From Rufibacter sp. DG15C (GTDB lineage: Bacteria > Bacteroidota > Bacteroidia > Cytophagales > Hymenobacteraceae), in assembly GCF_001577755.1 (NCBI RefSeq), contig NZ_CP010776.1, forward strand, positions 2,480,001 through 2,544,000: a DNA stretch of 64,000 nucleotides. Reading direction: 5' to 3'. Shown here in pieces: positions 3,690-63,988 of this stretch; position 1 is the stretch's first letter; every line of letters starts with the position of its first letter. Under the pieces are notes generated by a model. It saw only the letters and a program-made list of their open reading frames with translations, was not told where the DNA came from and ran no database searches. The translations under genes and the position numbers were made by a program.

Positions 3690-3730
3690 TCCGTTTTTGG
3701 CCTGTTTTCCAGAAATCAGGCTAAAAACGA
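3690..3730. repeat. Intergenic palindromic repeat, copy 1
   Basis: Copy of the dispersed palindrome (left half CCGTTTTTGGCCTGTTTTC, right half slightly degraded). It lies 21 bases past the DoxX stop codon and upstream of the M14 gene. Confidence 0.85.
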
Positions 3731-3751
3731 AGGAAGTGATTAGGTATTTAG

Positions 3752-4189
3752 TTAGTACCGGCGCGCAGGCGAAGTTCCGAAAACGCTTTGATCTAAGCTG
3801 TAGCGGCCCGGTCCAATGAAGAGCAGGCTGAAGAACAGAATGGCCGCTTCCAAGGCATGGGAATAGCCTGCAAAACCGTCACCCGACACAAAGTGCATGT
3901 AGGCCGCTACCAACATGGTACAAAACATCAACACCATGGCCGGACGGAAAAACAAGCCCAGAATCATCAGCAATCCACCGCCTGCCTCGGCGAAGGAGGC
4001 TAAGAAGCCCCATATGACAGCGCCCTGCGTAATGCCTAGTGTGCCCATGGCTCCGCCTACTTTGGCCCACATCTCGGGACCGCCCGTTATTTTTGGCCAG
4101 CCGTGCACCATGAACATAATGCCAATGCCCACCCGGAGAATCAATAACCCGAGGTCTTGGTAGCGGTAGTTGTTTTTTAAAAGTTGCAT
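3752..4189 (-). CDS. DoxX family inner-membrane protein
   Basis: This is a 145-residue protein with about four membrane segments. The early block LGLLILRVGIGIMFMVHGWPKITGG, with its HGWPK signature, is characteristic of the DoxX/SURF4-like family. The C-terminus ends in a short charged tail after FIGPGRYSLD. DoxX proteins are small quinone-linked or redox-associated membrane proteins whose exact reaction is unsettled. The gene is transcribed away from the pentapeptide-repeat gene at 4382, with a shared 190-base upstream region. No partner genes (for example a DUF692 pair) are adjacent, so the function here is open. Confidence 0.88.
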   Translation of the reverse strand: MQLLKNNYRYQDLGLLILRVGIGIMFMVHGWPKITGGPEMWAKVGGAMGTLGITQGAVIWGFLASFAEAGGGLLMILGLFFRPAMVLMFCTMLVAAYMHFVSGDGFAGYSHALEAAILFFSLLFIGPGRYSLDQSVFGTSPARRY

Positions 4190-4381
4190 GTTAGTGTAGG
4201 AGCGGTGTTTGGTAGTGTGGTTAAGAATATCAGGCTAAAATCTGAAAAAAATCTTTACCATGGTGCATCCCTCTTCAGGAAACCCTGTCTTTAGACTACA
4301 AGCATCAAAAAAGTAAGAAAGCAGAAACCTAATCTGGAACTACTTTTAACCTGACTCACCAAAAACCAAAACCAAACGCAT

Positions 4382-5200
4382 ATGAAAAACTTGTTCTTTT
4401 TCCTGTTAGCTTTCATAGCAGTACCTGTATCATTGTGGGCACAGACCACGGTTCCTGCCTCTGAGGTGATTGCCAAAATTAACCGCGGTGAGCGCGTAAA
4501 CTACAAAAATGTAACCATCACTGGTCTTCTGGACCTGACACAGTTGCAGAACAAAACGCAGGTAACCAATATCAACAAAGGCAATGACGCCATTACCCCT
4601 CAACGCGAGTACCTGAGCAAGGTAACCGCGCCGCTTACCTTTGAGAACTGCACCTTTCAAGGCGACGTTCTAGCCTACTACAACCCAGACAACATAGAAG
4701 GGGAGAATATTAAACTAGAAAAACGCGACCTGAAGAATGAAATTTACAACACAGATTTTGAAGAAGCCGTGACGTTTGCCAATTGCGTGTTTGAGGGCAA
4801 GACTGCGTTCAAGTATTCCAAGTTTAAAGACGCCGTTTCCTTTGCCGGAAGCACCTTCAAAAAAGAGGCTCTGTTCAAGTACATGAAAGTGCAGGAGTCC
4901 GTGGATTTCAGCAAAGCCAAGTTCCTGGGCGATGCCACGTTCAAGTATGTCAAGTTTCCAGAGGCGGCTGCCTTCAATGGCGCCACGTTTGCAGATCTTG
5001 CCAATTTCAAATATGCTGAGTTCAACGACGGAGCAGATTTCCAGAAGGCTCGTTTCACCGGCTTCGCCGATTTTAAATACTCCCAGCTGAAAGGCAATGT
5101 GAAGTTTGCCGGCGCCACCCGCACGGGTGACTTGGATGTGAAATACGCCAAAGTCAACAACTCCAAGCCTAGCACTTCTATGATTGAAGTTGCTAAGTAA
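4382..5200 (+). CDS. Secreted pentapeptide-type solenoid protein with 22-residue FKY periods
   Basis: A signal peptide (MKNLFFFLLAFIAVPVSLWAQ) precedes a 250-residue mature protein. From about residue 140 to 260 it is built of 11-residue units with phenylalanines spaced 5 then 6 apart, as in the Pentapeptide_3-like repeats. Every second unit starts with FKY (FKYSKF, FKYMKV, FKYVKF, FKYAEF, FKYSQL, VKYAKV), giving a strict 22-residue period. Residues 25-125 are less regular, although LTFENCTFQGDV is similar. The expected structure is a right-handed beta helix in the periplasm or on the surface. No enzymatic residues are evident. A canonical terminator follows the stop codon. Confidence 0.82.
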   Translation: MKNLFFFLLAFIAVPVSLWAQTTVPASEVIAKINRGERVNYKNVTITGLLDLTQLQNKTQVTNINKGNDAITPQREYLSKVTAPLTFENCTFQGDVLAYYNPDNIEGENIKLEKRDLKNEIYNTDFEEAVTFANCVFEGKTAFKYSKFKDAVSFAGSTFKKEALFKYMKVQESVDFSKAKFLGDATFKYVKFPEAAAFNGATFADLANFKYAEFNDGADFQKARFTGFADFKYSQLKGNVKFAGATRTGDLDVKYAKVNNSKPSTSMIEVAK

Positions 5201-5213
5201 GATGTAAATAACA

Positions 5214-5253
5214 ACAGAAAGGGCGGCTACTGTGAAGTGGCCGCCCTTTCTGT
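5214..5253. terminator. Bidirectional Rho-independent terminator
   Basis: Perfect 14-base arms (ACAGAAAGGGCGGC and its complement) around a 12-base loop. It lies between the convergent solenoid gene and the lipoprotein gene and can serve both. Confidence 0.85.
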
Positions 5254-5271
5254 TTCTGAAGGATTTAGAAG

Positions 5272-5997
5272 TTAGAAAAGCATCACGCTGGTCACCTTAG
5301 TATCACCAGGCACGGTGTTTAGCTTCAGCTTTGACACTTCAGGGGCTGGCATACTACTTACATCCAACACAAAACTCATCTTGCTATCCTCTGAGATGGC
5401 TACAAAATTGCCTTCGCCTTGGGCTACACTTTTGATGTTCATAGCTGCCTTTAGGTCTTTGTAGGTAGAGCCGATGCCAATACCGCTTTGGGTTTTAAAA
5501 GCCGGGTTGAGTACGGTGATGCGCCAGACTTTGCAAGCCGTTCCTTTGCATTGCTGTTCCACGCGCATATCGGTGCGGTTGCGTTCGCCTAGCACTTCAT
5601 AGGCTTTCACGGCAGTGCCTTCCTGTTGCAGTTCCACTTCTTTGAGTTTGTTGTAGCCGTATTGTTTTTGCAGTTCTTCAATGGTCATCCCAATCTTAAC
5701 GGCGCCGGCCTGACCTTTCTGAATGCTCAGGTTAAATAGTGGGTTTTCTGCACTAGGCGCTTTGCTGGCCGAGGTAGAGGTGCCGGCAGAAACGTCCTCT
5801 GCAATGACGGCTTCCATGGCATTGTCGTCCATGGTTTCGGTCTCAGTAGCATCTGGTTCTGGCGTTAATTCTTCTTCTTTGGCTTCTTCAGCGGCGGCGG
5901 CAATTGAATCTTCTTGGGTAGTAGTGGTGGTCGCGTTGTCGGTGCCACAAGAGGCTATGAATAAGCAGGTGCCTAAAGCAAGGAGGGTCTTTCTCAT
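5272..5997 (-). CDS. Hypothetical lipoprotein
   Basis: I place the start at the second ATG (5997) because it gives a compact lipoprotein signal: MRKTLLALGTCLFIASC with a cysteine at the end of the lipobox, followed by a Thr-rich linker. Residues 25-75 are acidic and low in complexity (runs of E, A and T). Residues 75-240 form a globular part with a likely disulfide (QQCKGTACKVW) and a repeated fold theme, IKIGMTIEEL and GIGSTYKDL, as seen in small periplasmic DUF modules. The 241-residue protein is predicted to sit in the outer or inner membrane facing the periplasm. I do not recognise a function. Confidence 0.75.
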   Translation of the reverse strand: MRKTLLALGTCLFIASCGTDNATTTTTQEDSIAAAAEEAKEEELTPEPDATETETMDDNAMEAVIAEDVSAGTSTSASKAPSAENPLFNLSIQKGQAGAVKIGMTIEELQKQYGYNKLKEVELQQEGTAVKAYEVLGERNRTDMRVEQQCKGTACKVWRITVLNPAFKTQSGIGIGSTYKDLKAAMNIKSVAQGEGNFVAISEDSKMSFVLDVSSMPAPEVSKLKLNTVPGDTKVTSVMLF

Positions 5998-6132
5998 AGT
6001 GGTCAAAGTATTGGGCAGCATAAGTACGAGTTATAGAAAGATAACGCAAGGGTAGGAGGTAAGTTGCTTTGCTCTTTTTTGGCGATGGCGCGTATTCAAG
6101 GTAATTTGGCGTCGCATTTAATCCTTGAAGAC

Positions 6133-6966
6133 ATGGCAAAGAAGCCTCTGATTTTAGTATCTAATGATGATGGTATTACGGCACCGGGTATTCATACGCT
6201 GGTGAAAGTAATGCGCAAAATAGGTGACGTGGTAGTAGTAGCACCAGACGGACCGCAATCTGGCATGGGACACGCCATCACCATTGGTGACACTCTTCGT
6301 CTGGACCGTTCACTCATCTTTCCAGAGTTGGAGGCCTATGAATGCTCCGGCACGCCCGCCGATTGCGTCAAGATTGCCAAGCACCATGTCTTGAAGGATA
6401 GAAAACCCGACTTGGTAGTAAGCGGCATCAACCACGGTTCCAACTCCAGCATCAGCGTCTTGTATTCTGGAACTATGTCGGCAGCTATTGAGGCGGCCAT
6501 TGAAGGTCTGCCGGCCATTGGTTTCTCATTGTGTGACTACGGCCATGATATTGACTTCTCACATACAGAAAAGTACGTGGAAATGATTACGCGTCAGGCG
6601 CTGGAGTTTGGGATTCCGCACGGCGTTGCCTTGAACGTCAACTTCCCGAAGAAATCTGATAAACCCATTGCCGGGGTGCGGGTGTGCCGTCAGGCGCGCG
6701 CCAAATGGGAAGAGGAGTTTGACGAGCGCAAAGACCCCATGGGCCGAAGCTACTATTGGCTCACCGGTAACTTCGTGAACTTTGACAAGGGCGCCGACAC
6801 GGACGAGGCCGCCCTTGCCGAGAACTACGTCTCTGTAGTGCCCTGCCAGTTTGATATGACCGCCGCCTTCGCCATTGCCCAACTTAACAACGAGTGGAAC
6901 CTGAATCCAGAGGTAAAGCCTTTCAAAGGTTCCAAGACCATGGAAAGCGGTCACGAGGAGGGGTAA
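6133..6966 (+). CDS. surE: 5'/3'-nucleotidase SurE
   Basis: The product starts MAKKPLILVSNDDG, which carries the SurE metal-binding signature NDDG directly after the first strand. I therefore start at 6133 rather than at the upstream ATG at 6064. Further family marks are GPQSGMGHAIT, the SGTPADCVK block and VVSGINHGSNSS. The 277-residue protein is slightly longer than the usual 250. SurE removes phosphate from 5' and 3' nucleoside monophosphates and short polyphosphates in the cytoplasm, with a role in stationary-phase survival. A palindromic repeat begins one base past the stop codon, and a terminator follows it. Confidence 0.95.
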   Translation: MAKKPLILVSNDDGITAPGIHTLVKVMRKIGDVVVVAPDGPQSGMGHAITIGDTLRLDRSLIFPELEAYECSGTPADCVKIAKHHVLKDRKPDLVVSGINHGSNSSISVLYSGTMSAAIEAAIEGLPAIGFSLCDYGHDIDFSHTEKYVEMITRQALEFGIPHGVALNVNFPKKSDKPIAGVRVCRQARAKWEEEFDERKDPMGRSYYWLTGNFVNFDKGADTDEAALAENYVSVVPCQFDMTAAFAIAQLNNEWNLNPEVKPFKGSKTMESGHEEG

Positions 6967-6967
6967 T

Positions 6968-7007
6968 CCGTTTTTGACCTGTTTTCTAAAAAACAGGTCA
7001 AAAACGG
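6968..7007. repeat. Intergenic palindromic repeat, copy 2
   Basis: Near-perfect palindrome with both GGCC cores replaced symmetrically by GACC and GGTC. It begins one base after the surE stop codon, and a separate canonical terminator follows. Confidence 0.9.
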
Positions 7008-7040
7008 AATTGTTATCGAACTCTCTTCCGCCACTAAAAT

Positions 7041-7077
7041 AAAAAGGCTGCCCCATCTCTGGAGCAGCCTTTTTTTA
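7041..7077. terminator. Rho-independent terminator
   Basis: A hairpin of AAAAAGGCTGC against GCAGCCTTTTTTT lies between the convergent surE and metalloprotease genes. Confidence 0.85.
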
Positions 7078-7093
7078 TAAAGCTTGAATAAAA

Positions 7094-9658
7094 TTATCCT
7101 CTTGGGTTCAAGGCCTCTGTGATTCTGTCAGAAAGGTCTTGCAAGTGGTAGTTGCTCAAGGCATCTGTCTGGGTAGAAGCAGACTTGATCATGCTGTTGA
7201 TGTTGCGTAACTCAGCTTTAGCTACGGAAATCACATCACTCTGCCCGATGGCCATGGTGGGTGCAGCAGTACCTCTACCGGCACCAGCGGCTGCTTGCGC
7301 AGCGGTTGGGGCTGGAGCTGGTTTCACCAATTCAATCAGTTCTTCTACGTAGATCTTCTGAAGGTTACGACGGTACACGTCAATGGCTTGCTTGTTCTTC
7401 AGTTCTTTGAAGATAGAGCCGTTCATGTCGGTGAAGAAGTCGGTTACCTTGTAGGCTTTGTTACCATCCATGGCTTCAGCGGCAATCAGTTTAGTGAGCG
7501 TGTTCTGGCTTACCAATCTGTTCAAAACTGCCTGCTGGCTTCTAGAGATGATCACCATTGGGTTAGCACCGGTGTTGTTCAACACGGCCGGGCTTAACAA
7601 CCAAGTTGGCGTGGTAAACAATTGCTTATCTAGGAACGTCATGGCTTCTTTTTGGGTAGCCGCTGGCGTGCGCTCATAGATAAAGCCTTCTTGTTCTACC
7701 GTCTTCGGGTTCTCATAGATACCACCAATGTTTTTGGCCACGTGGCCCATGTAGCGGTTGAACTGACCGGTTAACTGACCATAGATGTTCTCCAGGTTCT
7801 CGTAGCCTTCGTTCTCAGACTTGGTCCACTCTGGCAACTTGGCCAACGTGCGCTGCAGGTTCTTGATACCGTACTCAGAGGCTTTCATGGCGTTGTCGCT
7901 CAAGTCTTCGTTCTGAGAGTGTGGATCATCTGGGTTAATCTCCGTCCCGAACCAGTTACGGCGGTTCTTCAATTTCTCCATGGTCATCTTGTTCAAGACC
8001 GGAATCTCATCCTGCGCATTCTTGGCGTTTGGCAACACGCGGTAGCCCCACTCAATGGCCCAGTTGTCATAGTCGCCAATTCTTGGGTAGATGCCTTTAG
8101 AAGAGATGTTGTCTTCTGGCTGTGCCACGTAGTTAAAGCGAGCGTAGTCCATGATAGAAGGCGTATGGCCATTGGCCTCAACCCACTTCTTATCACGCAG
8201 GTTTTCTGTAGGAACCGTTGAGCTTGAGCCGTAGTTGTGACGAAGGCCTAAAGTGTGACCCACTTCGTGTGAAGACACAAAACGGATCAAGTCACCCATC
8301 AATTCTTCAGAGAATTCCATTTTACGGGCACGTGGGTCAATAGCGGCGGCCTGGATAAAGTACCAGTCACGTACCAATTTCATCACGTTGTGGTACCAGT
8401 TAATGTGGCTTTCCATGATCTCGCCGCTGCGTGGGTCAGAGATAGACGGACCGCTGGCATTAGAGATTTCAGAAGGCTTGTATACAATGGCAGAGTGACG
8501 GGCATCGTCTAGACTCCAGTTTGGATTCTCTTTGGCGCTTGGGGCCATTTTACCAATGATGGCATTCTTGAAGCCGGCTTTCTCAAAGGCTTTCTGCCAG
8601 TCGTTCACACCTGCAATCAGGTAAGGCACCCACTGCTTAGGCGTAGCGGGGTCAATGTAGAAGATGATAGGTTTGATAGGCTCTACCAATTCGCCGCGCT
8701 TGTACTTGGCCATGTCCTCAGGCTTAGGCTCCAGTCTCCAGCGCTTCACCATTTCAATTTCCTTCACGCCTTGTGGGTTGGCGTCAAAGTCTGTGTACCC
8801 AACGGTGAAGTAACCCACGCGTGGGTCAAAGAATCTTGGCTGCATGGGCTTCTTAGGCAATACAACCATAGAGGTGTTGATCTCAATAGTAGAAGAACCG
8901 TTCAACGTAGAACCCGCCGCGCCACCTGCAGGGGCTGCCCCGAAACCAGTGGTGGGAGGCGTCAAGACATACGTCTTCACGGTAGTTACCTCAATGTTGG
9001 TAGGGTAGCTTCGAACGTTTTGGATGTAGCTACGGTCAGAGAGGAAGTTACCCAGTCTGAAACGGGTCTTGCCCGCCGCATTGCTGAAGGAGAAAATCTC
9101 GTTCTCGCCTTTGATGTAATCGGTTACATCTACCACCGTGCTCTTGTTGTTTGGTCCATAAGCGGCCACGTTGAAGGCGGCTACTATGGCCTGCACGTTA
9201 GAACGCTGTACACTCTGGTACATGCTCTTGGTGCTGTCTGGGCTGTAGGTGGCGTAAGAGATTTTGCGCATGAAGATGCGGTCATCCGGCCCTTTCTCAA
9301 ACATGATGACGGCAGAACCAATCTGGTCACCGGCGTAGCCAGAGGCAGAACGTACTTCGGCGCCGGCTTTGGAGATACGGTTTACTACCAATAGCTCACG
9401 ACCCAATACAGAGTCTGCCAGCTCAAAGAAGTACTTGTCATCTACTTTGTGCGTCTTGAAAAAACCGGCTTTTGACACGGCTTTGTCAGTGATCACGTCA
9501 GCGTATGGCTTCGGTTTGGCTTTGGTGTTGGCAGTGCCTGCCATGCCGGCGGCTCCAGCTACCCGGCGCGTTGAGTCGGCGGGCTGGGTGCGGCCTTGGG
9601 CCATAGTCGCTCCTGCAACAGAGCCAACCAAGCCGAGGGTTAATAAGAATTTCTTCAT
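7094..9658 (-). CDS. Secreted zinc-dependent metalloprotease (DUF5117/DUF5118 family)
   Basis: The start at 9658 yields a clean signal peptide (MKKFLLTLGLVGSVAGATMAQ); the longer in-frame extension looks non-coding. The 854-residue protein carries a metzincin-type zinc site HEVGHTLGLRHN near residue 465. The regions around it match the large Bacteroidota family with DUF5118 near the N-terminus and DUF5117 before the catalytic site. The downstream IMDYARFNYVAQPED provides the Met-turn-like IMDY. The C-terminal 300 residues form the family's own domain, with a Pro/Ala-rich patch near residue 800. It probably degrades proteins outside the cytoplasm. No accessory genes adjoin it. Confidence 0.9.
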   Translation of the reverse strand: MKKFLLTLGLVGSVAGATMAQGRTQPADSTRRVAGAAGMAGTANTKAKPKPYADVITDKAVSKAGFFKTHKVDDKYFFELADSVLGRELLVVNRISKAGAEVRSASGYAGDQIGSAVIMFEKGPDDRIFMRKISYATYSPDSTKSMYQSVQRSNVQAIVAAFNVAAYGPNNKSTVVDVTDYIKGENEIFSFSNAAGKTRFRLGNFLSDRSYIQNVRSYPTNIEVTTVKTYVLTPPTTGFGAAPAGGAAGSTLNGSSTIEINTSMVVLPKKPMQPRFFDPRVGYFTVGYTDFDANPQGVKEIEMVKRWRLEPKPEDMAKYKRGELVEPIKPIIFYIDPATPKQWVPYLIAGVNDWQKAFEKAGFKNAIIGKMAPSAKENPNWSLDDARHSAIVYKPSEISNASGPSISDPRSGEIMESHINWYHNVMKLVRDWYFIQAAAIDPRARKMEFSEELMGDLIRFVSSHEVGHTLGLRHNYGSSSTVPTENLRDKKWVEANGHTPSIMDYARFNYVAQPEDNISSKGIYPRIGDYDNWAIEWGYRVLPNAKNAQDEIPVLNKMTMEKLKNRRNWFGTEINPDDPHSQNEDLSDNAMKASEYGIKNLQRTLAKLPEWTKSENEGYENLENIYGQLTGQFNRYMGHVAKNIGGIYENPKTVEQEGFIYERTPAATQKEAMTFLDKQLFTTPTWLLSPAVLNNTGANPMVIISRSQQAVLNRLVSQNTLTKLIAAEAMDGNKAYKVTDFFTDMNGSIFKELKNKQAIDVYRRNLQKIYVEELIELVKPAPAPTAAQAAAGAGRGTAAPTMAIGQSDVISVAKAELRNINSMIKSASTQTDALSNYHLQDLSDRITEALNPRG

Positions 9659-9865: not shown

Positions 9866-9911
9866 AAGTCGTTTTTGGCTTTTTTTCCAGAAAACAAGCC
9901 AAAAACGACTT
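9866..9911. repeat. Intergenic palindromic repeat, copy 3
   Basis: Outer arms are AAGTCG and CGACTT, which differ from the common CCG/CGG yet still pair. It sits between the metalloprotease promoter region and a terminator for the 98-residue gene. Confidence 0.88.
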
Positions 9912-13948: not shown

Positions 13949-13995
13949 AAACCCGTTTTCAGCCTAGTTTCTAGATACTAGGCCGAAAACGGTTT
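13949..13995. repeat. Intergenic palindromic repeat, copy 4
   Basis: Variant copy with inner core GCCTAG/CTAGGC in place of GCCTG/CAGGC and outer arms AAACC/GGTTT. It lies 24 bases past the stop codon of the first TonB-domain gene. Confidence 0.85.
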
Positions 13996-14951: not shown

Positions 14952-14995
14952 AACCGTTTTCGGGCTGCTTTCCAGAAAACAGACCAAAAACGGTT
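14952..14995. repeat. Intergenic palindromic repeat, copy 5
   Basis: Outer arms AACCG and CGGTT pair; the inner left half is altered to CGGGCTGC. It lies 22 bases past the stop of paralogue B and upstream of paralogue A. Confidence 0.85.
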
Positions 14996-16358: not shown

Positions 16359-16398
16359 CCGTTTTTAGCCTGATTTCTAGGAATAACTCCGAAAACGG
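16359..16398. repeat. Intergenic palindromic repeat, copy 6 (degraded)
   Basis: The outer arms CCGTTTT and AAAACGG remain, while the inner right half is changed (AACTCCG). It lies 56 bases upstream of the DUF1028 gene. Confidence 0.75.
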
Positions 16399-17900: not shown

Positions 17901-17945
17901 TAGGGGGATGACGAGCCCGTCTTTGATTTAGGCTTTCTGCTCCTT

Positions 17946-17985
17946 CGTTTTTAGCCTAATTCTCAGAAAATAGCCCGAAAACTGG
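17946..17985. repeat. Intergenic palindromic repeat, copy 7 (degraded)
   Basis: CGTTTTTAGCCTAATTCTC with a partly matching right half. It is the last element of the hairpin-rich gap, 100 bases upstream of the M28 peptidase gene. Confidence 0.75.
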
Positions 17986-21156: not shown

Positions 21157-21195
21157 CCGATTTTGGCCTAATTTCAGAAAAATAGCCTAAAAACG
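21157..21195. repeat. Intergenic palindromic repeat, copy 8
   Basis: Left half CCGATTTTGGCCTAATTTC with a shifted right half ATAGCCTAAAAACG. It lies 8 bases past the DUF983 stop codon. Confidence 0.78.
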
Positions 21196-21203
21196 AAGCA
21201 AAA

Positions 21204-21717: not shown

Positions 21718-21777
21718 AAGCGCTCCTCTGTTTTTGGCCTGTTTTCTTGAAAACAGGCCAAAAACAGAGGAGCGCTT
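21718..21777. repeat. Intergenic palindromic repeat, copy 9 (longest: 29-base perfect arms)
   Basis: The core is extended outward by AAGCGCTCCTCTG and its complement, giving 29 perfect paired bases with a 2-base TT centre. It lies 23 bases past the stop of the barrel receptor gene. Confidence 0.95.
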
Positions 21778-24327: not shown

Positions 24328-24367
24328 CCGTTTTTAAGCTATTTTCCAGAAAAGAGGCCAAAAACGG
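24328..24367. repeat. Intergenic palindromic repeat, copy 10
   Basis: Here the degraded half is on the left (AAGCTA) and the good half on the right (GAGGCC), the reverse of most copies. It lies in the divergent promoter region between the receptor and the histidine kinase gene. Confidence 0.82.
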
Positions 24368-25461: not shown

Positions 25462-25505
25462 AATCGTTTTTGGCCTCTTTTCATGAAAAGAGGCCAAAAA
25501 CGATT
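25462..25505. repeat. Intergenic palindromic repeat, copy 11
   Basis: Outer arms AATCG and CGATT pair, and the inner cores are GGCCTC and GAGGCC. It begins two bases after the histidine kinase stop codon, inside the kinase-regulator unit. Confidence 0.92.
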
Positions 25506-26335: not shown

Positions 26336-26376
26336 GAAAGAGGAGCGCTCACCCACGTGGGTAAGGCTCCTCTTTC
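26336..26376 (+). terminator. Rho-independent terminator of the two-component pair
   Basis: Stem GAAAGAGGAGC against GCTCCTCTTTC around a 19-base loop, with a T run that is the first arm of the adjoining palindrome copy. It lies 20 bases past the regulator stop codon. Confidence 0.8.
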
Positions 26377-26416
26377 GTTTTTGGCCTGTTTTCTAGAATT
26401 CAGGCCAAAAACGAAA
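26373..26416. repeat. Intergenic palindromic repeat, copy 12
   Basis: Outer arms TTTCG and CGAAA pair; the inner cores are GGCCTG and CAGGCC. It overlaps the end of the terminator hairpin, so a canonical terminator and this element are joined here. The rest of the 366-base gap up to the M16 gene holds only a promoter candidate. Confidence 0.9.
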
Positions 26417-30248: not shown

Positions 30249-30288
30249 CCGTTTTTAGGTTATTTTCTGGAAATCAGGCCAAAAACGG
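30249..30288. repeat. Intergenic palindromic repeat, copy 13
   Basis: The good half is on the right (CAGGCC) and the degraded half on the left (AGGTTA). It lies 5 bases past the stop of the T9SS cargo gene, on the minus strand. Confidence 0.85.
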
Positions 30289-32051: not shown

Positions 32052-32208
32052 CAGGCTGTTAGCATGAGAATGGAAGAAATAGTCTGCCTCTCTGTGAAGA
32101 TAGAAGCACAGATAGCAAAACCTTCTAATAGGACAGGTGAATACGCTTTGATACCCGCTGTCCCTTAAAGGTAAATGTAAGGCGGTTTAAAACGCTTAAT
32201 GTGCCTGC

Positions 32209-32246
32209 CATTTTTAGGCTATTACACAGAAAATAGCCTAAAAATA
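32209..32246. repeat. Intergenic palindromic repeat, copy 14 (degraded)
   Basis: CATTTTTAGGCTATT with AATAGCCTAAAAAT. The GC outer bases are lost. It lies in the gap between the T9SS gene and the oxidoreductase gene, and the right arm runs close to the start of a short open frame. Confidence 0.72.
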
Positions 32247-32258
32247 AATATTTATGGC

Positions 32259-32351: not shown

Positions 32352-32390
32352 CCGTTTTTGGCCAGTTTACGCGAAAAAGGCAAAAAACGG
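32352..32390. repeat. Intergenic palindromic repeat, copy 15
   Basis: CCGTTTTTGGCC with a degraded right half (AGGCAAAAAACGG). It abuts the stop codon of the short open frame. Confidence 0.82.
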
Positions 32391-32500
32391 TTAGGTGGTA
32401 TCCCTAAAGCCACTTACCCTATTGTACCTTATCGTGGGCAGACGCGTTTTTGTATAAACCACAACGCCGCGGCCTTGTCTCTATACCTTAAAAAGAACCC

Positions 32501-33515: not shown

Positions 33516-33565
33516 AAAATGAGGAAGCCTCTTGAACTAGTATGTCCAAGAGGCTTCCTCATTTT
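33516..33565 (+). terminator. Rho-independent terminator
   Basis: Stem AATGAGGAAGCCTCTTG against CAAGAGGCTTCCTCATT with a 12-base loop and a T run. Its last bases overlap palindrome copy 16. It lies 17 bases past the oxidoreductase stop codon and may serve argH from the other side. Confidence 0.85.
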
Positions 33566-33598
33566 TGACTTGTTTTCTGGAAAACAGGCCAAAAACGG
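33560..33598. repeat. Intergenic palindromic repeat, copy 16
   Basis: The left arm is the T run of the terminator; the right arm GAAAACAGGCCAAAAACGG is perfect. It ends one base before the argH stop codon. Confidence 0.82.
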
Positions 33599-36065: not shown

Positions 36066-36105
36066 CCGTTTTTGGCCTGTTTTCTGGAAAGTAGCCTGAA
36101 AACGG
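36066..36105. repeat. Intergenic palindromic repeat, copy 17
   Basis: The left half CCGTTTTTGGCCTGTTTTC is perfect; the right half reads GTAGCCTGAAAACGG. It lies 10 bases past the argB stop codon, inside the operon. Confidence 0.85.
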
Positions 36106-36913: not shown

Positions 36914-37055
36914 TAGCTATTGGGCGTTAAATTCTAGATTATTTGGTGGCACAATTTACTTGCAGCGCAGATTTTTAGGCTTTCTCAATTCTCCTATGCC
37001 AACCTGAAAGGACCTTATGAGCTAGTTAGCAGGCGGTGACTATTCACCTTGGGAG

Positions 37056-37092
37056 CGTTTTTGGCCTGTTTTCCAGAAAATGGACCAAAACG
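37056..37092. repeat. Intergenic palindromic repeat, copy 18
   Basis: The left half CGTTTTTGGCCTGTTTTC is intact; the right half has lost one base (GGACCAAAACG). It lies 18 bases past the argF' stop codon. Confidence 0.8.
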
Positions 37093-37110
37093 ATTCTTCG
37101 CGTTTAGCCT

Positions 37111-39313: not shown

Positions 39314-39356
39314 TCCGTTTTTTGGCCTGCTTTTCAGAAAACAGGCCAAAAACGGA
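39314..39356. repeat. Intergenic palindromic repeat, copy 19
   Basis: Outer arms TCCG and CGGA; GGCCTG and CAGGCC inside, with one extra T in the left arm. It lies 4 bases past the argC stop codon. Confidence 0.9.
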
Positions 39357-49963: not shown

Positions 49964-50002
49964 GTAATACTTAAGAGTAAAAGAATTGGTGGCTGCTGGA
50001 GG

Positions 50003-50040
50003 CGTTTTCGGCCTGATTTCCGGAAAATAGCCCAAAAACG
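50003..50040. repeat. Intergenic palindromic repeat, copy 20
   Basis: GCGTTTTCGGCCTGATTTC with GGAAAATAGCCCAAAAACG. It lies between the first symporter and the ABC gene start. Confidence 0.8.
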
Positions 50041-50100
50041 GGCCGTCCATCCAGACACAGCAACTCGCAAAGGTAGAGAATCCTATTGATTTGCCACAAA

Positions 50101-51664: not shown

Positions 51665-51718
51665 ACCGCCTTCGTTTTTGGGCTGTTTTCTGGAAAACAG
51701 CCCAAAAACGAAGGCGGT
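51665..51718. repeat. Intergenic palindromic repeat, copy 21 (26-base perfect arms)
   Basis: Outer extension ACCGCCTTCG and CGAAGGCGGT, and a symmetrical core change to GGGCTG/CAGCCC. Two-base TG centre. It lies 13 bases past the stop of symporter B and upstream of symporter A. Confidence 0.95.
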
Positions 51719-54133: not shown

Positions 54134-54172
54134 TCGTTTTTGGCCTGTTTTCTAGAAATGAGACCAAAAATG
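54134..54172. repeat. Intergenic palindromic repeat, copy 22 (degraded right half)
   Basis: CGTTTTTGGCCTGTTTTC with GAGACCAAAAATG on the right. It lies 6 bases past the stop codon of the M61 gene. Confidence 0.78.
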
Positions 54173-54178
54173 AACGTC

Positions 54179-56747: not shown

Positions 56748-56762
56748 AAGCTGTACAGGAAT

Positions 56763-56800
56763 CCGTTTTGAGCTCTTTTCTCAAAAGTAAGCCAAAAACG
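56763..56800. repeat. Intergenic palindromic repeat, copy 23
   Basis: CCGTTTTGAGCTCTTTTC with AAAAGTAAGCCAAAAACG. Several arm bases do not pair. It lies 34 bases past the CinA stop codon. Confidence 0.72.
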
Positions 56801-56834
56801 AAAGGCAGATAAGCAGACTTATAAAACCTTGTGG

Positions 56835-57436: not shown

Positions 57437-57484
57437 GCTTCCGTTTTTAGCCTGTTTTCTGGAAACTAGCCCAAAAACGGAAGC
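57437..57484. repeat. Intergenic palindromic repeat, copy 24
   Basis: Outer arms GCTTCCG and CGGAAGC pair; the inner left reads AGCCTG and the inner right CTAGCCC. It lies in the divergent promoter region of CinA and the first PAP2 gene. Confidence 0.88.
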
Positions 57485-58438: not shown

Positions 58439-58473
58439 GTTATAAGGAATTTCAGTTTTTTGCGGCCTATATT

Positions 58474-58743
58474 CTAATGCGGAAGCAGCTGATTCACATT
58501 GACATGGGCCACGTAGCCTTCTAAAGCAGAAGTATCTGTAACCGCTGTGATTTTCTCCGTTTTATGGTATGTTTTGGAGGAATATACCTCCACTAAAAAA
58601 TGCCTGGTCCAGTAAAGCCGCACCGTTTGTTCCTGTTCTGTTCTAAGCATCAGAAACCTACCGTGCGTCAAGAGAAAATCTGCACGACCGGCCAAATCTG
58701 AGCATAGAAAGTGAACAAGGGGTATCATGCCATACATACGCAC
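58474..58743 (-). CDS. Small hypothetical cytoplasmic protein
   Basis: This 89-residue protein has no signal peptide. The pattern DFLLTHGRFLMLRTEQEQTVRLYWTRHFLVEVYSSK, with EKITAVTDTSALEGYVAHVNV after it, matches a type of short protein I have seen often in Cytophagales: a beta-rich half with a 'VxLYxLxxFFVEVYYDxxxNxI' core, then a short 'LEPYL' motif. The function is not known. It may begin at a second ATG a few codons later. It lies on the opposite strand to its neighbours, after the tRNA terminator. Confidence 0.6.
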   Translation of the reverse strand: MRMYGMIPLVHFLCSDLAGRADFLLTHGRFLMLRTEQEQTVRLYWTRHFLVEVYSSKTYHKTEKITAVTDTSALEGYVAHVNVNQLLPH

Positions 58744-58865
58744 TGCCCATTCTTACTGGATGTTGAAGCGCTTGTTTTCTTATTTCACAGAAGCCTTCTG
58801 CCAGTTAGCCCGTATATAATTTCTAGTAAAACCATGCCGTTTTTGTGTCAACCTAACCCCGATAC

Positions 58866-59618
58866 ATGCCACATCCACAATCTAAAAGAGACCATTGGGC
58901 CAGAAGAATAGGGGCGTTATTTGCCACGCTTACCCTAGAGGTGCTGTTGCTCTGGTTGGTGTTTGTGGGGTCTGCGCTGTTGTTTTTCTGGATGGCCACC
59001 AAGGTCTTTGTGGAACAGGAGAAAGCCTTGGACCAGGCCGCCTTTGCGTTTGTAGGAGATTTTACCACGCCTGAGCTCACAGACGCCATGTATTTTGTGA
59101 CGTTCTTCGGGTCAAAGTATTTCTTGATCTTCGGGTCCTTGGGACTGGCGCTCTTCTTCCTTGTTTTTAAGAAATGGCGGTTCTATGCCATTAAAATCAT
59201 TGCCATTGCCGCCACTACCACGCTGTTCAACCAAACCATGAAATGGCTTTTTGGTAGACCCCGGCCAGAAACGGCCTTTCTAGAGCAAGGCGGCAATAGC
59301 TTCCCGAGCGGGCATGCCATGATTGGCGGGGCTTTTTGGGGCCTGCTGCTGTACCTGATTTGGACCAACGTGAAACATACAGGCTTACGGTGGTTTTTGA
59401 GCGGCCTGTTTCTGCTCTGGATTCTTTTGATTGGCTTTAGCCGGGTGTACTTGAACGTGCACTATGCGTCAGACGTGTTAGCTGGCTGGGGCGCAGGGTT
59501 CTTCTGGCTGGTCATTGCCATTGCCCTGTTAAAAAAGCTGCAGAAACGCATGGGCCGCAAAATTGAAGAGGAAGTAAGCGACGAAGATATTTCAGAGGAG
59601 ACCTTTCAAAGGGAGTAA
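58866..59618 (+). CDS. PAP2 family membrane phosphatase, paralogue B
   Basis: The 250-residue protein keeps the same three motifs as paralogue A: KWLFGRPRPETAF, SFPSGHAMIGGAFWG and GFSRVYLNVHYASDVLAG, plus five or six membrane helices. The C-terminus is a charged, glutamate-rich tail (EEEVSDEDISEE), absent from paralogue A. The two copies probably came from a duplication that now has tRNA-Leu and a small gene inserted between them. Its N-terminal start MPHPQSKRDHWARRIG follows a leader without a clear ribosome-binding site. The substrate is likely a lipid phosphate. Confidence 0.92.
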   Translation: MPHPQSKRDHWARRIGALFATLTLEVLLLWLVFVGSALLFFWMATKVFVEQEKALDQAAFAFVGDFTTPELTDAMYFVTFFGSKYFLIFGSLGLALFFLVFKKWRFYAIKIIAIAATTTLFNQTMKWLFGRPRPETAFLEQGGNSFPSGHAMIGGAFWGLLLYLIWTNVKHTGLRWFLSGLFLLWILLIGFSRVYLNVHYASDVLAGWGAGFFWLVIAIALLKKLQKRMGRKIEEEVSDEDISEETFQRE

Positions 59619-59648
59619 ATCAAGCAAGGCTCGTAGCTTGTAGAAAGT

Positions 59649-59686
59649 CGTTTTTGGGTTGTTTTCCAGGGAATAGGCCAAAAACG
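59649..59686. repeat. Intergenic palindromic repeat, copy 25
   Basis: Outer arms AGTCG and CGGCT pair with one G-T wobble; the cores are altered (GGGTTG, AGGCC). It lies 30 bases past the stop of PAP2 paralogue B. Confidence 0.82.
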
Positions 59687-59721
59687 GCTTTTTACTTGAA
59701 AGACACACTCTCATGCCTTTG

Positions 59722-60255
59722 TTAAAGCCTATTCTTTAAAAGCTTTTGGTACAAGCCCAGGTTTTCTGCGTCAAAGACCACAAAGGAGACTTCTAGTGGA
59801 AAGGCGTGGTTTTCTAAGTACTCCTGCACCGTCTCTACCGCAACTTTGGCGGCCTGGTCTTTGGGATAACCATAAATGCCCGTGCTAATGTTGGGGAACG
59901 CGATGGACTTGACATCATGCTTGGCCGCTAACAAGAGAGAATTACGGTAGCAGTTGGCCAGGAGGATTGGTTCGTTTTTGTGGCCTCCGTTCCAGACGGG
60001 GCCCACGGTGTGAATGACATACCTGGCAGGCAGGTGACCAGCGGTGGTAATGACGGCCTCGCCGGTTTTACAGCCACCTTGTTTGGCGACAATCTTTCGG
60101 CAGTCTTCTAAAATGGCCGGCCCGCCTGCTCTATGAATGGCCCCGTCAACGCCGCCGCCGCCCAGTAGACTGGTATTGGCCGCGTTCACAATGGCCTCTG
60201 TATGAACCTTGGTGATGTCGCCTTGGACAAGGTGGATGCGGTGGCTGTTTGGCAT
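59722..60255 (-). CDS. Macro-domain O-acetyl-ADP-ribose deacetylase
   Basis: The 177-residue protein is a single macro domain (MacroD type). [24 protein letters not shown] supplies the adenosine-binding and catalytic loop, and [12 protein letters not shown] binds the phosphates. It should hydrolyse O-acetyl-ADP-ribose or remove ADP-ribose from acidic residues. The start [17 protein letters not shown] is typical. It stands between palindrome copies 25 and 26, and the GAF protein gene lies downstream on the other side of copy 26. No ADP-ribosyl transferase is seen nearby. Confidence 0.93.
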
Positions 60256-60257
60256 GG

Positions 60258-60295
60258 CGTTTTTGGGTTGTTTTCTGGAAAATAGGCTAAAAACG
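60258..60295. repeat. Intergenic palindromic repeat, copy 26
   Basis: CGTTTTTGGGTTGTTTTC with GAAAATAGGCTAAAAACG. It lies between the macro-domain start and the stop of the GAF gene. Confidence 0.78.
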
Positions 60296-60348
60296 ATTCT
60301 CTACCGATCACTCATTCTACAGTTCTTTCAATGCCATCTAATAGATAG

Positions 60349-62676
60349 CTAGCACTTCACTTTTACGCGCAAGGCTTTTAAACCGCTCACGCCTTGCAGG
60401 TCTTCAATCTCCAGTTGTTCTACGTCGTCGGTTAGAATGTTTTTGTTCTGGAGGTATTCAATGTACTCCAGGTATTCATTGGCTTCGCGGGCCTGGGAGT
60501 AGACAATGGCAATCTTGCCGGGCTGCGTGAGGCGTTCATCTGTGGTGCGCACCAAGGCCTTGTCCACACGCTTTTTGACAATCTCATAGCGGATGTTGTA
60601 GGCGCCGTCCACGTCAAATTTGCGTTCATCCTGCCTAAACCTGATGGCCAGGGGTTGGCTGTGCATCAAGATTAGCTGCGTGGTTTCTAGCGGGACTTCC
60701 AGTTGCGGTTTGAGGGCGGCGGTGAGGCGCGTCACTTCGCACATGACCATGAGTTGCCACAGGCGCAGGTTGCGCAGGAACATGATGTCAAAAGGCTGTT
60801 TTTCCTCCAGAGAAGAGCCCACGTAGATGTTGAATTCCACCCCGTCCGTCTTGAACTTCTCAAAATAATGCGGGTACATTTCCTGGGCCTTCAGTTCTTC
60901 CTGCTCAATGTAGTTAGAGATGGTCTCATTGATAAGGGTGAGGCTTTCTTCAAAAGCTTTGCGGCGTTTGTACAAGATGCCCAGCTGCGGGTCCATGGCG
61001 TTGCGGTAGTTCTGGATGTAGGGCACCAGGTCCTCGTGCGTGGCCTCTAAGAAGGTAAACATGGGCTCTACCTGCGTGCGCAGCATCTCAAAAATCAAGA
61101 TACCATCCTGGAGCAGAACGCCTTTCTTTAACTGTCGCAAATGCTTGGACACGGAGAAACGCAACTCGTCCAGAATGGGCAGGGTGTGCACCTCAATGGC
61201 TTTCTTTAAGATGCGCTCTGCCAGATGCAGGTGCTCGGCTAAATCGCCTTGAATGGCGGTGTTTCTTTCTGTGCTGGAACTACGCACGTCTGCCACGGCG
61301 TACAGCGGGTACACGTCTTTAAACACAATCGGCTCCATTTCGGCGGGGCCATTGAGTTGATTGGCTTTGTTGAGCATGTTCAAGGCCGCTTCTCTAAAAC
61401 GCCACTCCAGCACTGGATGGATGGCCGTGAACTTCTCCCGGATGACCGCCTGCACCCGTGATTCTACCTCCTCAGAATTTCTATTGACCGCCACCGCAAA
61501 CAAAGGCAGGAACTGGTCCATTTTGGCCAGGGAAAAGTTGTCCAAGTCCCCAGGGTTAGGCGAACCCAATTCCAGGATGCCAATGGGCTCATCACCGTAG
61601 CGCAAAAGGGCTAGGATGATGTTTTTGATGCCCATGCCCAGCATTTCTTCGCGCACGCCGTCTGGCAGCAGCTGGGTCACAGATACGTCTTTGATGACCA
61701 ACGGCTTGCCGTCCCGCACCAGGTTGTCATAGATAGACTTAAAGCCAGCGTAGCTGCTGCTGTCTGGGTCGCTCTGCAACAAGAAACTGTGGTTGATCTT
61801 ATTCCCGAAGTTCACAAACGTACTCCGGTTCTTGTGAAAAGCGGCCACACCCAGTTGTAAGTGCGGACGTTTAAAGAAGATGCGCACCTTTTCCTGTAAC
61901 TGCTCAAAGCGGTCTGGAGCCAGCATTACATCACGCTCTAGCAAATCATTCTTAAGCGAAGACAAAACCTCCTGTACGGTTACGTCTACCAAATGCAAAG
62001 TGTAGAAACCGCTAATCTCAAACAGCTCTGGCGGCAAGGCCTGCATCCAGAGGTCCATGTCCCGAATGTTGTCCAGCATGAACTGAATGTCTGACTCGGC
62101 TAGTTCTGGGAGCTCATGCCTGGCGGTTATCTCCAGAAACTGGGTGTTAATCTCCACATTGAAGTGGCGGTACAAGCCCAATTGGTAGTCTGGAACAGTG
62201 TAAATCAAGAACTCCTCATGGGGCACCTGCACGCCGTAAAACTTCTCCAGCACCAAAAAATAGACCATGCGCACGCGGTTGAACAACATGCGATTCTCAT
62301 CAATGTTGAGCGGGCGTTTTAGGTGGTTTTGGTCCGTGAGGATAATCTGCTTAAACAGGTCTGTATGGTAAAAGCTGGCATCATACAAAGGGCCCACGGT
62401 ACCAATAGCCTCTACCTCTTGCGTGGCCGGCGGAAAGATGGCCGTCATCAATAAATCAATGAGACACTGGTGCTTCTCCAGAATGCTTAAATCTGTGATG
62501 GGCTGCAGGAGTTCTGGTGCGGCTTTGAGTTGCCGCTTAATTTCATCGGCGCAAAGAGAAAAGCTGCTTCGGCAGCCAGTTTGCTCATTTTGCCAGTAAG
62601 TAATTATAGGTATCAGGCTGAAATGCGCCTTAAAGGGAAACGTAGAAACGCTTATCTGGTGTTCTTGGGAGTGCAT
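60349..62676 (-). CDS. GAF domain-containing protein (hypothetical function)
   Basis: This 775-residue cytoplasmic protein has no signal peptide or membrane helix. A GAF-like domain lies at about residues 245-395, with NFGNKINHSFLLQSDPDSS, PLVIKDVSV and ALLRYGDEPIGILELGSPN. The N-terminal 240 residues and the C-terminal 370 residues are mostly alpha-helical and match no domain that I can name. The C-terminal part has a helical array (ILKKAIEVHTLPILDELRF, RRKAFEESLTLINETISNY). GAF domains bind small ligands or act in dimers, so a signalling role is likely, but no output domain is seen. It is a single gene. Confidence 0.8.
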   Translation of the reverse strand: MHSQEHQISVSTFPFKAHFSLIPIITYWQNEQTGCRSSFSLCADEIKRQLKAAPELLQPITDLSILEKHQCLIDLLMTAIFPPATQEVEAIGTVGPLYDASFYHTDLFKQIILTDQNHLKRPLNIDENRMLFNRVRMVYFLVLEKFYGVQVPHEEFLIYTVPDYQLGLYRHFNVEINTQFLEITARHELPELAESDIQFMLDNIRDMDLWMQALPPELFEISGFYTLHLVDVTVQEVLSSLKNDLLERDVMLAPDRFEQLQEKVRIFFKRPHLQLGVAAFHKNRSTFVNFGNKINHSFLLQSDPDSSSYAGFKSIYDNLVRDGKPLVIKDVSVTQLLPDGVREEMLGMGIKNIILALLRYGDEPIGILELGSPNPGDLDNFSLAKMDQFLPLFAVAVNRNSEEVESRVQAVIREKFTAIHPVLEWRFREAALNMLNKANQLNGPAEMEPIVFKDVYPLYAVADVRSSSTERNTAIQGDLAEHLHLAERILKKAIEVHTLPILDELRFSVSKHLRQLKKGVLLQDGILIFEMLRTQVEPMFTFLEATHEDLVPYIQNYRNAMDPQLGILYKRRKAFEESLTLINETISNYIEQEELKAQEMYPHYFEKFKTDGVEFNIYVGSSLEEKQPFDIMFLRNLRLWQLMVMCEVTRLTAALKPQLEVPLETTQLILMHSQPLAIRFRQDERKFDVDGAYNIRYEIVKKRVDKALVRTTDERLTQPGKIAIVYSQAREANEYLEYIEYLQNKNILTDDVEQLEIEDLQGVSGLKALRVKVKC

Positions 62677-62997
62677 ACACGGCTTTAAACGGAAATTCTA
62701 CAAGTATGTCCGAAAAAAGCACCATTTACTTTCCGCATTTTCAGAGATGTTTTTCAAGGGAAGCCGGTCTTAGAAAAAGAAGGCTTTGGTGCCGCCTTTT
62801 ATCAGATAGGCTTGGTAGGGAGACTGATTAATATTAGCTGGTGTAAAAGTTTTCTAATTATTGCGATTAAAATTAAGTTGAATTAACTTATTTAGTTATC
62901 CTTAAAAAGGATGAAATATGCTAAACAGTTGAATTTTAATTATGTTTTAATCTGGTTAATGAAACGAGTTAATAGCGGAAATAAACTCTAGTTTATA
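62677..62997. other. Intergenic region, AT-rich; no gene seen
   Basis: This stretch upstream of the GAF gene contains no open frame or palindrome copy. It is strongly AT-rich from 62820 to 62997 and likely holds the GAF gene promoter, which I could not place. Confidence 0.4.
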
Positions 62998-63031
62998 AAA
63001 AAAACAGCCCACTAAAAGTGAGCTGTTTTTT
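62998..63031 (-). terminator. Rho-independent terminator of the fasciclin gene
   Basis: AAACAGCCCACT with AGTGAGCTGTTT (one mismatch) and a long A/T tract on either side. It lies 23 bases past the fasciclin stop codon. Confidence 0.72.
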
Positions 63032-63054
63032 CTGCTAATGTAAATCTGTCAAGA

Positions 63055-63621
63055 TTACATGGTTGGTAAAACTACAGCATCAATTACATGGGTAACGCCA
63101 TTGCTAGAGATAACATCTGCAATAGAAACTGTGGCTCCGTTGATCATGACCATGTTGCCCTTGCGGGTAACAGTTAAGGTTTCTCCATTCACAGTTTTTA
63201 GTTTCTGTCCGTTTTTCAGGTCTTTGGCCTGCAATCTGCCTGGTACTACGTGATAGGTCAACACGGCTGTCAACTTGGCTTTGTTTTCAGGGAGTAAAAG
63301 CGACTCTACCGTGCCAGCTGGCAGTTTCTCAAAGGCAGCGTTGGTAGGAGCAAACACCGTGAAAGGACCTGGGCCCATCAAGGTTTCTACCAAACCAGCG
63401 GCTTTAACAGCGGCTACCAGGGTAGTATGATCGCTGGAGCCAAGAGCGTTGGCCACAATATTTTTAGAAGGCACCATCATGGCGCCACCCACTAGCACAC
63501 CTTCTTTCTTCTCCATACCCGTGGTTTTGTCCATCTTGGTTTTAGAAGTAGTTTGGGCAGAGGCATCAAAGGTGAAGAAAGCAGTTCCGGCTAAGGCAAA
63601 TAATACAATAGACTTTTTCAT
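63055..63621 (-). CDS. Secreted fasciclin domain protein
   Basis: The 188-residue protein has a signal peptide (MKKSIVLFALAGTAFFTFDASAQ), a short charged linker (residues 24-50) and one fasciclin domain (about residues 55-188). Its motifs are clear: NIVANALGSSDHTTLVAAVKAAGL, GPFTVFAPTNAAFEKLP and the closing NGVTHVIDAVVLPTM. Such domains mediate adhesion at cell surfaces in bacteria. The gene is AT-poor and follows its own terminator. No other adhesion or export gene is adjacent. Confidence 0.94.
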   Translation of the reverse strand: MKKSIVLFALAGTAFFTFDASAQTTSKTKMDKTTGMEKKEGVLVGGAMMVPSKNIVANALGSSDHTTLVAAVKAAGLVETLMGPGPFTVFAPTNAAFEKLPAGTVESLLLPENKAKLTAVLTYHVVPGRLQAKDLKNGQKLKTVNGETLTVTRKGNMVMINGATVSIADVISSNGVTHVIDAVVLPTM

Positions 63622-63944
63622 AATGATTAGGATGGCTTTTATGTGTGTAATGCCTCACTTACGAAGCTCCCTATATCACCGGATTTTGGAATTGAAAAAA
63701 TATTTTATTCAGTACTTAATTGCTTTAGAATTGTATGATGTATTTAAACCGAATTAAAGCTTTGTATTAGACGGAAAAATAAAAATTGTATAGATATAAA
63801 AGTGGAAAGGCTTGCGCAGATGCTATACGTTTCCTTGGGAGTAAATATGTCATGAGGGTTTGTGAACCAAGTGAATGGTTTGACTCAAAGGTGCACAACA
63901 AGCTGTCCAAAGCTTCCTGACTAAGGCAACGGCATACCGAAATT
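63622..63944. other. Upstream region of the fasciclin gene; no gene seen
   Basis: About 320 AT-rich bases with no convincing open frame. The fasciclin promoter should lie here, but I see no clear box. The last dispersed palindrome copy follows directly. Confidence 0.4.
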
Positions 63945-63988
63945 AACCGATTTTGGCCTGGTTTCCAGAAAATAGCCCGAAAACGGTT
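63945..63988. repeat. Intergenic palindromic repeat, copy 27
   Basis: AACCGATTTTGGCCTGGTTTCC with a right half ending GAAAACGGTT. It lies 12 bases from the window end, so the neighbouring gene is not visible. Confidence 0.8.

What the first reader, a model, noticed from the sequence alone, without database searches (positions are those of the whole stretch)
3690..63988. Family of about 27 dispersed intergenic palindromes, one per 2.4 kb
Seen directly: near-identical palindromes with half-site CCGTTTTTGGCCTGTTTTC and its complement, around a 2-base centre, at the 27 positions listed as repeats. None falls inside a coding gene that I accept. Repeats of this density suggest a REP-like or MITE-like family, but no RAYT-type or other transposase is present in the window. 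It could be a conserved nucleoprotein or RNA element specific to this genus. I know of no published description of this motif, but I cannot search.
Basis: partly seen in the sequence, partly recalled or inferred. Interest (0 to 1): 0.85.

Follow-up and report, generated by a model that had tools for sequence, protein, structure and literature searches.

The report
Genus-wide 40-bp palindromes at gene junctions
One genus of bacteria carries on the order of 1,700 copies per genome of a 40-letter DNA palindrome, usually one per gap between genes and held at fixed places by selection, which looks like the landing site of an unidentified DNA-binding protein.

Summary
The window has 27 copies of a 40-bp dyad (two 19-bp arms, 2-bp centre). 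A 464-kb sample of the same chromosome, window included, has 194, against 0 in reversed sequence; that scales to about 1,700 per genome. The 16 genomes of the genus that were drawn have 809-2249 matches to a sparse geometry pattern, controls 3-15; other genera are at or near control. Named contigs point to Rufibacter.

It is not a REP/RAYT family: no Y1 transposase match in this genome, no REP tag. The arms vary independently, so hairpin pairing is not what is conserved. Copies stay at the same junctions in relative G017: 65 both, 41 neither, 6 discordant of 112. Selection falls on T/A pairs one helical turn apart. Species have their own dialects, also at two sites inside genes.

Best reading: binding site for an unidentified symmetric DNA-binding protein, nearly always one per short junction, probably architectural or insulating. 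The protein was not found. A link to transcription termination is weak and shrank when I corrected my own test.

The parts
3691..3730 (.). 40-bp dyad site; conserved at the aligned place in relative G017
6968..7007 (.). 40-bp dyad site, convergent junction; site in the same interval in G017
9869..9908 (.). 40-bp dyad site; aligned site in G017
13953..13992 (.). 40-bp dyad site; maps to the same G017 site as 14954
14954..14993 (.). 40-bp dyad site; maps to the same G017 site as 13953
16359..16398 (.). 40-bp dyad site, divergent junction; aligned site in G017
17945..17984 (.). weak 40-bp dyad site; no counterpart found in G017
21157..21196 (.). 40-bp dyad site; aligned sites in G017, G048, G006, G045, none found in G012
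21728..21767 (.). perfect 19-bp arms inside a flush 10-bp outer stem; an outer stem is also present, with different letters, in G017
24328..24367 (.). 40-bp dyad site, divergent junction; aligned sites in G017, G048, G045
25464..25503 (.). 40-bp dyad site, perfect arms; aligned sites in G017, G048, G045
26375..26414 (.). 40-bp dyad site; site in the same interval in G017
30249..30288 (.). 40-bp dyad site, convergent junction; aligned site in G017
32208..32247 (.). weak 40-bp dyad site
32352..32391 (.). weak 40-bp dyad site; aligned site in G012
33559..33598 (.). 40-bp dyad site, convergent junction, next to a terminator-like hairpin
36066..36105 (.). 40-bp dyad site; a site is kept in G017 although the flanks have diverged
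37055..37094 (.). 40-bp dyad site; no counterpart in G017
39316..39355 (.). 40-bp dyad site; aligned sites in all five relatives compared
50002..50041 (.). 40-bp dyad site; aligned site in G017
51672..51711 (.). perfect 19-bp arms with a flush 7-bp outer stem; an outer stem is also present, with changed letters, in G017
54134..54173 (.). 40-bp dyad site; aligned site in G017
56762..56801 (.). weak 40-bp dyad site
57441..57480 (.). 40-bp dyad site, divergent junction; aligned sites in G017 and G048
59648..59687 (.). 40-bp dyad site, convergent junction
60257..60296 (.). 40-bp dyad site
63947..63986 (.). 40-bp dyad site

Best explanation
The element is a DNA-level, dyad-symmetric binding site. 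Shown: the arms are conserved independently of pairing, the site has no preferred strand, it is held at fixed chromosomal positions by selection on specific bases, it is confined to one genus as far as searched, and short gene junctions almost never carry more than one. Inferred: a dedicated protein, probably a homodimer or a dimer of dimers, grips each site through pairs of T/A tracts one helical turn apart in each arm. Also inferred: it marks gene junctions as an architectural, insulating or supercoil-holding anchor rather than as a classical repressor. Species have shifted their preferred inner letters, and the sites, including two inside genes, have followed.
For: Pairing between arms matches the shuffled expectation at most of 20 column pairs over 194 sites. 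RNA energy of 160 sites in co-directional junctions is -13.50 against -13.41 for arm-swapped controls, and 1 of 20 positions differs by strand at p<0.05. Isolated half-sites are at control level (12 against 11 at 12 bits). Orthologous copies in G000 and G017 are 96-100% identical at positions 5, 6, 16, 17, 24, 25, 35 and 36, and 56-67% at 9, 11, 12, 14, 20, 21, while flanks are about 77%. Of 112 orthologous junctions 65 have the site in both, 41 in neither, 6 differ. Of 260 junctions of 60-300 bp, 1 carries two sites. Two in-gene sites are kept in 9 of 9 (copA-type) and 10 of 10 genus members scored with their own species profile; the first at the same locus coordinate, the second at the same codon and phase. 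Both are absent from the two sister-genus genomes. Genus restriction. A named Rufibacter plasmid has 2 sites in 100 kb.
Against: No binding protein was identified. Some column pairs do depart from independence: 8/33 (z 6.0) and 17/24 (z 3.0) towards pairing, the centre 20/21 (z -5.7) away from it. The information content, 49.8 bits, far exceeds the 11.2 bits needed to find one site per 2.4 kb; this hints at an origin by copying. The one candidate binder family tested, ParB, has no extra paralogue. Spacing along the chromosome is not more regular than expected for sites dealt among junctions. Promoter-like motifs are no commoner in co-directional junctions with a site (44 of 171) than without (28 of 132, p 0.41), so the site does not simply mark transcription-unit starts. 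The plasmid was scanned with profiles of other species, so its own dialect might be missed.
Confidence: 0.5

Rival explanations
1. A bidirectional transcription terminator or roadblock: the bound site stops RNA polymerase at the end of transcription units and partly replaces hairpin terminators.
For: Highest occupancy at convergent junctions of 60 bp or more (32 of 41, against 104 of 189 co-directional and 23 of 43 divergent). Median 33 bp after the upstream stop in co-directional junctions. Convergent 3' ends at junctions with a site have a hairpin terminator in 75 of 140, against 32 of 40 without a site (p 0.003) and 35 of 48 in other genera (p 0.03). In 26 cases among roughly 550 sites a hairpin touches a site, and in 16 of them its stem runs at least 5 bases into the site's outer T tract.
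Against: Two sites lie inside coding genes and are kept across the genus, where a terminator would harm. About half of divergent junctions have one. The effect is absent in co-directional junctions once the hairpin tail may use the site (70 of 242 against 55 of 176, p 0.67), and counting hairpins alone it is not significant against site-free convergent ends (76 of 140 against 27 of 40, p 0.15). The stronger figure came from masking the site.
Confidence: 0.15
2. A DNA uptake signal for natural transformation, kept uniform by biased uptake and recombination.
For: Species dialects at conserved places, a copy number like that of known uptake signals (recalled), scarcity on the named plasmid, and sites in genes where tolerated.
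Against: Known signals are about 10-12 bp, occur singly and often in genes (recalled); here there are no single half-sites above control, the site is 40 bp and 192 of 194 are not inside a called gene. Competence was not tested.
Confidence: 0.15
3. An old REP- or MITE-like mobile family that spread once in the genus ancestor and has since been frozen or co-opted.
For: 49.8 bits per site against 11.2 needed suggests that the copies were first made by copying; palindromic, mostly intergenic and numerous.
Against: No Y1 transposase match in this genome; no REP tag; no clean empty site among the 5 discordant junctions listed, of which one was printed as an alignment; nearly always one per short junction; selection on particular bases; no net length change against the sister genus at the copA-type site. 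It may still describe the origin.
Confidence: 0.15
4. An RNA hairpin acting on mRNA 3' ends.
For: Palindrome near stop codons; 8 of 194 sites have flush outer stems of at least 6 bp; two column pairs lean towards pairing.
Against: No general covariation, folding no better than arm-swapped controls, no Rfam match in the window, presence in divergent junctions.
Confidence: 0.05

Closest known systems
REP/BIME elements with TnpA_REP (RAYT)
   Same: Short palindromes in high copy, mostly between genes, near stop codons.
   Different: No Y1 transposase match in this genome, no GTAG/CGTC tag, no general hairpin covariation, almost no doubled copies in short junctions, fixed positions, common in divergent junctions.
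DNA uptake sequences (DUS/USS; features recalled)
   Same: High copy, species dialects, scarce on the one plasmid examined.
   Different: 40-bp obligate dyad instead of a short single core; nearly all outside genes; uptake untested.
Noc/ParB and other chromosome-organising sites (NBS, parS, matS; recalled)
   Same: Palindromic sites for a dimeric protein spread over the chromosome; the inner GTTTTC-YR-GAAAAC resembles parS in style only.
   Different: About 1,700 copies; one ParB match in each of the 18 genomes searched, so no Noc-like paralogue.
HIP1 of cyanobacteria (recalled)
   Same: Highly iterated palindrome restricted to a clade, function unknown.
   Different: HIP1 is an octamer and common in genes; this is a 40-bp site between genes.

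Membership tests
REP/RAYT | Y1 (TnpA_REP-type) transposase in the genome | tested here: not met
   PF01797: 0 matches in G000; 1-6 matches in each of the 15 other genus members searched, and matches in 10 of 12 genomes of other genera that lack the element, so no link with it
REP/RAYT | GTAG or CGTC tag at one end (PMC3733652: abstract in a search listing, passages, and section 15 seen) | tested here: not met
   19 GTAG and 7 CGTC in 388 10-nt flanks, 21.2 expected for each
REP/RAYT | Hairpin kept by paired changes | tested here: not met
   no general covariation, exceptions 8/33 and 17/24; folding equals arm-swapped controls
REP/RAYT | Mainly convergent and unidirectional junctions | tested here: inconclusive
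   Convergent favoured (32 of 41) but 23 of 43 divergent junctions of 60 bp or more occupied
MITE | Insertion polymorphism with target duplication | tested here: inconclusive
   6 discordant of 112 junctions; a repeat listed 5 and printed one alignment, not a clean insertion
DNA uptake sequence | Preferential uptake of DNA carrying it | not testable with these tools
   needs a transformation assay
DNA uptake sequence | Short core that occurs singly (recalled) | tested here: not met
   isolated half-sites at control level
Intrinsic terminator | Stable stem followed by a U tract | tested here: not met
   no pairing signal; T content at most 0.37 in the bins after the site. A minority of sites adjoin a separate hairpin
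Noc/ParB site | A ParB-family paralogue | tested here: not met
   one PF02195 match in each of 18 genomes, 10 of them genus members
Nucleoid-protein binding site | Occupied by a protein in vivo | not testable with these tools
   needs ChIP or pull-down

The most novel reading that the evidence does not exclude
A chromosome-wide marking system invented in one bacterial genus. A single DNA-binding protein occupies well over a thousand fixed 40-bp dyads, nearly always one per short gene junction, and drags them along when its specificity drifts, even through coding sequence. This would be a bacterial boundary or insulator system with no counterpart that I know of.
Probability: 0.4. Interest if true: 0.95.

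Novelty: new variant of a known kind. Interest (0 to 1): 0.82.

Why it matters
About 1,700 sites of 50 bits each at fixed gene junctions are a very strong shared non-coding signal, and the listings of my nine literature searches showed no description of it. If one protein binds them, it is a whole-chromosome organiser that arose within a single genus, and the dialects offer a natural experiment on how a protein and more than a thousand sites change together. It also gives a direct way into how bacteria insulate neighbouring transcription units.

Tried and rejected
RNA element: rejected as the main reading. Active mobile family: rejected for the present day. Noc-like ParB paralogue: none in 18 genomes. 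Regular spacing along the chromosome: not found. Promoter motif enrichment in junctions with a site: not found. A similar dyad in other Hymenobacteraceae genera: 6 genomes, 60-80 kb each, showed no dyad of comparable geometry and number, but the test is insensitive: it found the motif only weakly in G006 and not in the 20-kb G057 stretch, both of which carry it; one of the six (G002) gave no usable table because runs of N filled it; G007 showed another repeat and G009 AT-rich palindromes. Viral contigs: one exact pattern, 0 matches.

Two of my own results were corrected. Terminator depletion looked strong when the site was masked (convergent 51 of 140 against 32 of 40); letting the hairpin tail use the site reduced it to 75 of 140 and removed it in co-directional junctions. 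The 'flush hairpin' peak was largely an artefact of cutting the flank at the site edge: in 22 of 26 cases the stem runs on into the site by 1 base or more. Gene calls are from my own Markov-model caller, not a standard tool, and junctions longer than 300 bp may hide small genes. Profile thresholds differed between scripts (12-20 bits), so site counts per region vary slightly (102 and 104 for the same 264 kb).
Full report
Observation. The half-site is present 36 times in the window at up to 3 mismatches against 0.05 expected. Built into a 40-bp profile it gives 27 sites in the window and 194 in a 464-kb sample of the same chromosome (window plus 20 evenly spaced stretches), with none in the reversed sequence and almost no intermediate scores: 192 at 25 bits or more, 197 at 8 or more. 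The whole genome, 4,143,738 bases in one contig, has 805 + 835 half-site matches at up to 2 mismatches with 0 in the control. Scaling the sample gives about 1,700 copies.

Where it occurs. With a pattern that fixes only the geometry (GTTT-N9-TTT-N4-AAA-N9-AAAC, one mismatch), the 16 genus members have 809-2249 matches against 3-15 in the control, while the six other-genus genomes of that call have 3-28 against 0-15. Over 241 genomes of the order, 3 of them genus members, the largest count outside the genus is 222 against 48 (G302, apparently a different palindrome), and G325 has 37 against 5; the rest are at or near their controls. In 200 family genomes the half-site has 40-2074 matches in the 16 genus members and at most 4 in the 184 others. 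These groups were drawn from larger ones, so other carriers may exist. An exact search of named genomes found two contigs, both Rufibacter; the genus name rests on that.

DNA, not RNA. Across 194 sites the pairing between arms is what independent arms give at most of 20 column pairs; 8/33 (z 6.0) and 17/24 (z 3.0) lean towards pairing and the centre 20/21 (z -5.7) away from it. The two halves' scores are uncorrelated (r 0.05). Folding energy of the 160 sites in co-directional junctions equals that of arm-swapped controls. The centre is mostly pyrimidine-purine (149 of 194). Half-sites do not occur alone above control, and the spacing is nearly fixed (184 of 189 facing pairs at 2 bp). Relative to transcription, 1 of 20 positions differs between the two halves (p 0.018).

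Selection at fixed places. In 264 kb compared with 260 kb of G017 (mean 88% protein identity at the junction genes), of 104 sites 78 align with a site, 11 have one in the same interval, 2 have none, 13 could not be mapped. Identity along the site is sharply patterned: 96-100% at positions 5, 6, 16, 17 and their mirror positions, and 56-67% at 9, 11, 12, 14, 20 and 21; flanks are about 77%. At 112 orthologous junctions 65 have the site in both, 41 in neither, 6 differ. More distant pairs mostly agree but with small numbers (5-20 junctions), and G048 has several extra sites, for example 5 of 20 against G012.

Dialects. Species have their own inner letters (for example TTTTTGGCCTG in G000, TTTAGGGGCTg in G045, TTTTcGGcCTCa in G048). 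Of nine species pairs, five have orthologous copies less alike than random copies within either species (for example G048-G045: orthologous 0.71, within 0.76 and 0.72). Three, all with the degenerate G006, are mixed. In G000-G017, the closest pair and the only one with many junctions (54), orthologues are more alike (0.81 against 0.75 and 0.78). The other eight pairs rest on 5-8 junctions each, and in all nine the orthologues are more alike than random cross-species pairs. So the concerted change is supported but by small numbers.

Sites in genes. Two of the 194 lie inside real genes: a copper-type P-ATPase and a secretion-tail-type protein (names by my reading of the sequence). The first is present in 9 of 9 genus members scored with their own profile, at the same locus coordinate on the coding sequence; a tenth, G063, scores 20 with the G000 profile. 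It is absent from two sister-genus genomes and four paralogues, and the aligned sister proteins have the same length there. The second is found in 10 of 10 genus members tested, starting at the same codon and phase without alignment gaps, and in neither sister-genus genome (scored with the G000 profile). So the letters are kept as DNA even under a protein code, and at copA the site arose without a net insertion.

Junction rule. 217 of 378 junctions of 60 bp or more are occupied and 19 have two sites; 18 of these 19 are 300 bp or longer, leaving 1 of 260 below that. Occupancy is highest at convergent junctions. In divergent junctions the sites keep at least 41 bp from either start. In co-directional junctions a Bacteroidota-type -7 motif (recalled consensus) lies downstream of the site 39 times and upstream 6, partly because there is more room downstream, and is no commoner with a site than without (44 of 171 against 28 of 132, p 0.41). 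Spacing along the chromosome fits random dealing among junctions.

Terminators. Convergent 3' ends at junctions with a site carry fewer hairpin terminators (75 of 140) than those without (32 of 40; p 0.003) or than other genera (35 of 48; p 0.03); co-directional ends do not differ (70 of 242 against 55 of 176), and hairpins counted without a tail give 76 of 140 against 27 of 40 (p 0.15). In 26 cases a hairpin touches the site, and in 16 its stem runs 5 bases or more into it. This suggests cooperation with 3'-end formation in a minority. Sites inside genes and in divergent junctions argue against a general stop signal.

Minor anatomy. 8 of 194 sites continue flush into unrelated outer stems of 6-10 bp, as snap-back copying at a palindrome might make (inference). 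Two of them have outer stems in G017 as well, with different letters.

Mechanism and comparison. The T/A pairs one turn apart in each arm, mirrored about a pyrimidine-purine centre, fit a symmetric protein contacting one face of the helix (inference). The excess information (49.8 against 11.2 bits) suggests that copies first spread by a copying process and were then kept (inference). Nine literature searches listed no paper whose title or abstract start describes such an element. I saw passages and section 15 of PMC3733652 and only listings of the rest, and subscription journals are mostly not held.

Noticed in passing
genome G302, e.g. C226:7426-7461, C232:1939-1974: Another genome of the same order shows an excess (222 against 48) for the geometry pattern through what looks like a different palindrome, GTTTTGGGCA..TGCCCAAAAC.
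   Followed up: no
genome G325: 37 matches against 5 in the control for the same geometry pattern; sequences not inspected.
   Followed up: no
L032-L034 (G006): CGAGC-N5-GCTCG occurs 8 times in 60 kb against 0.01 expected, a separate repeat.
   Followed up: no
L067-L070 (G007, sister genus): AGATG-N14-CATCT occurs 7 times in 80 kb against 0.04 expected.
   Followed up: no
L013 (G000:C1:2000001-2020000): Only 2 sites in 20 kb and 7 called genes; possibly an acquired island.
   Followed up: partly
window 21728-21767 and 51672-51711: Sites embedded in longer perfect palindromes with outer stems that differ in letters but still pair in G017.
   Followed up: partly
L083, L084 (Rufibacter tibetensis plasmid 1): Only 2 sites in 100 kb of plasmid, about 42 expected at the chromosomal density of G000; scanned with the G000 profile, and L083 with four others.
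   Followed up: partly
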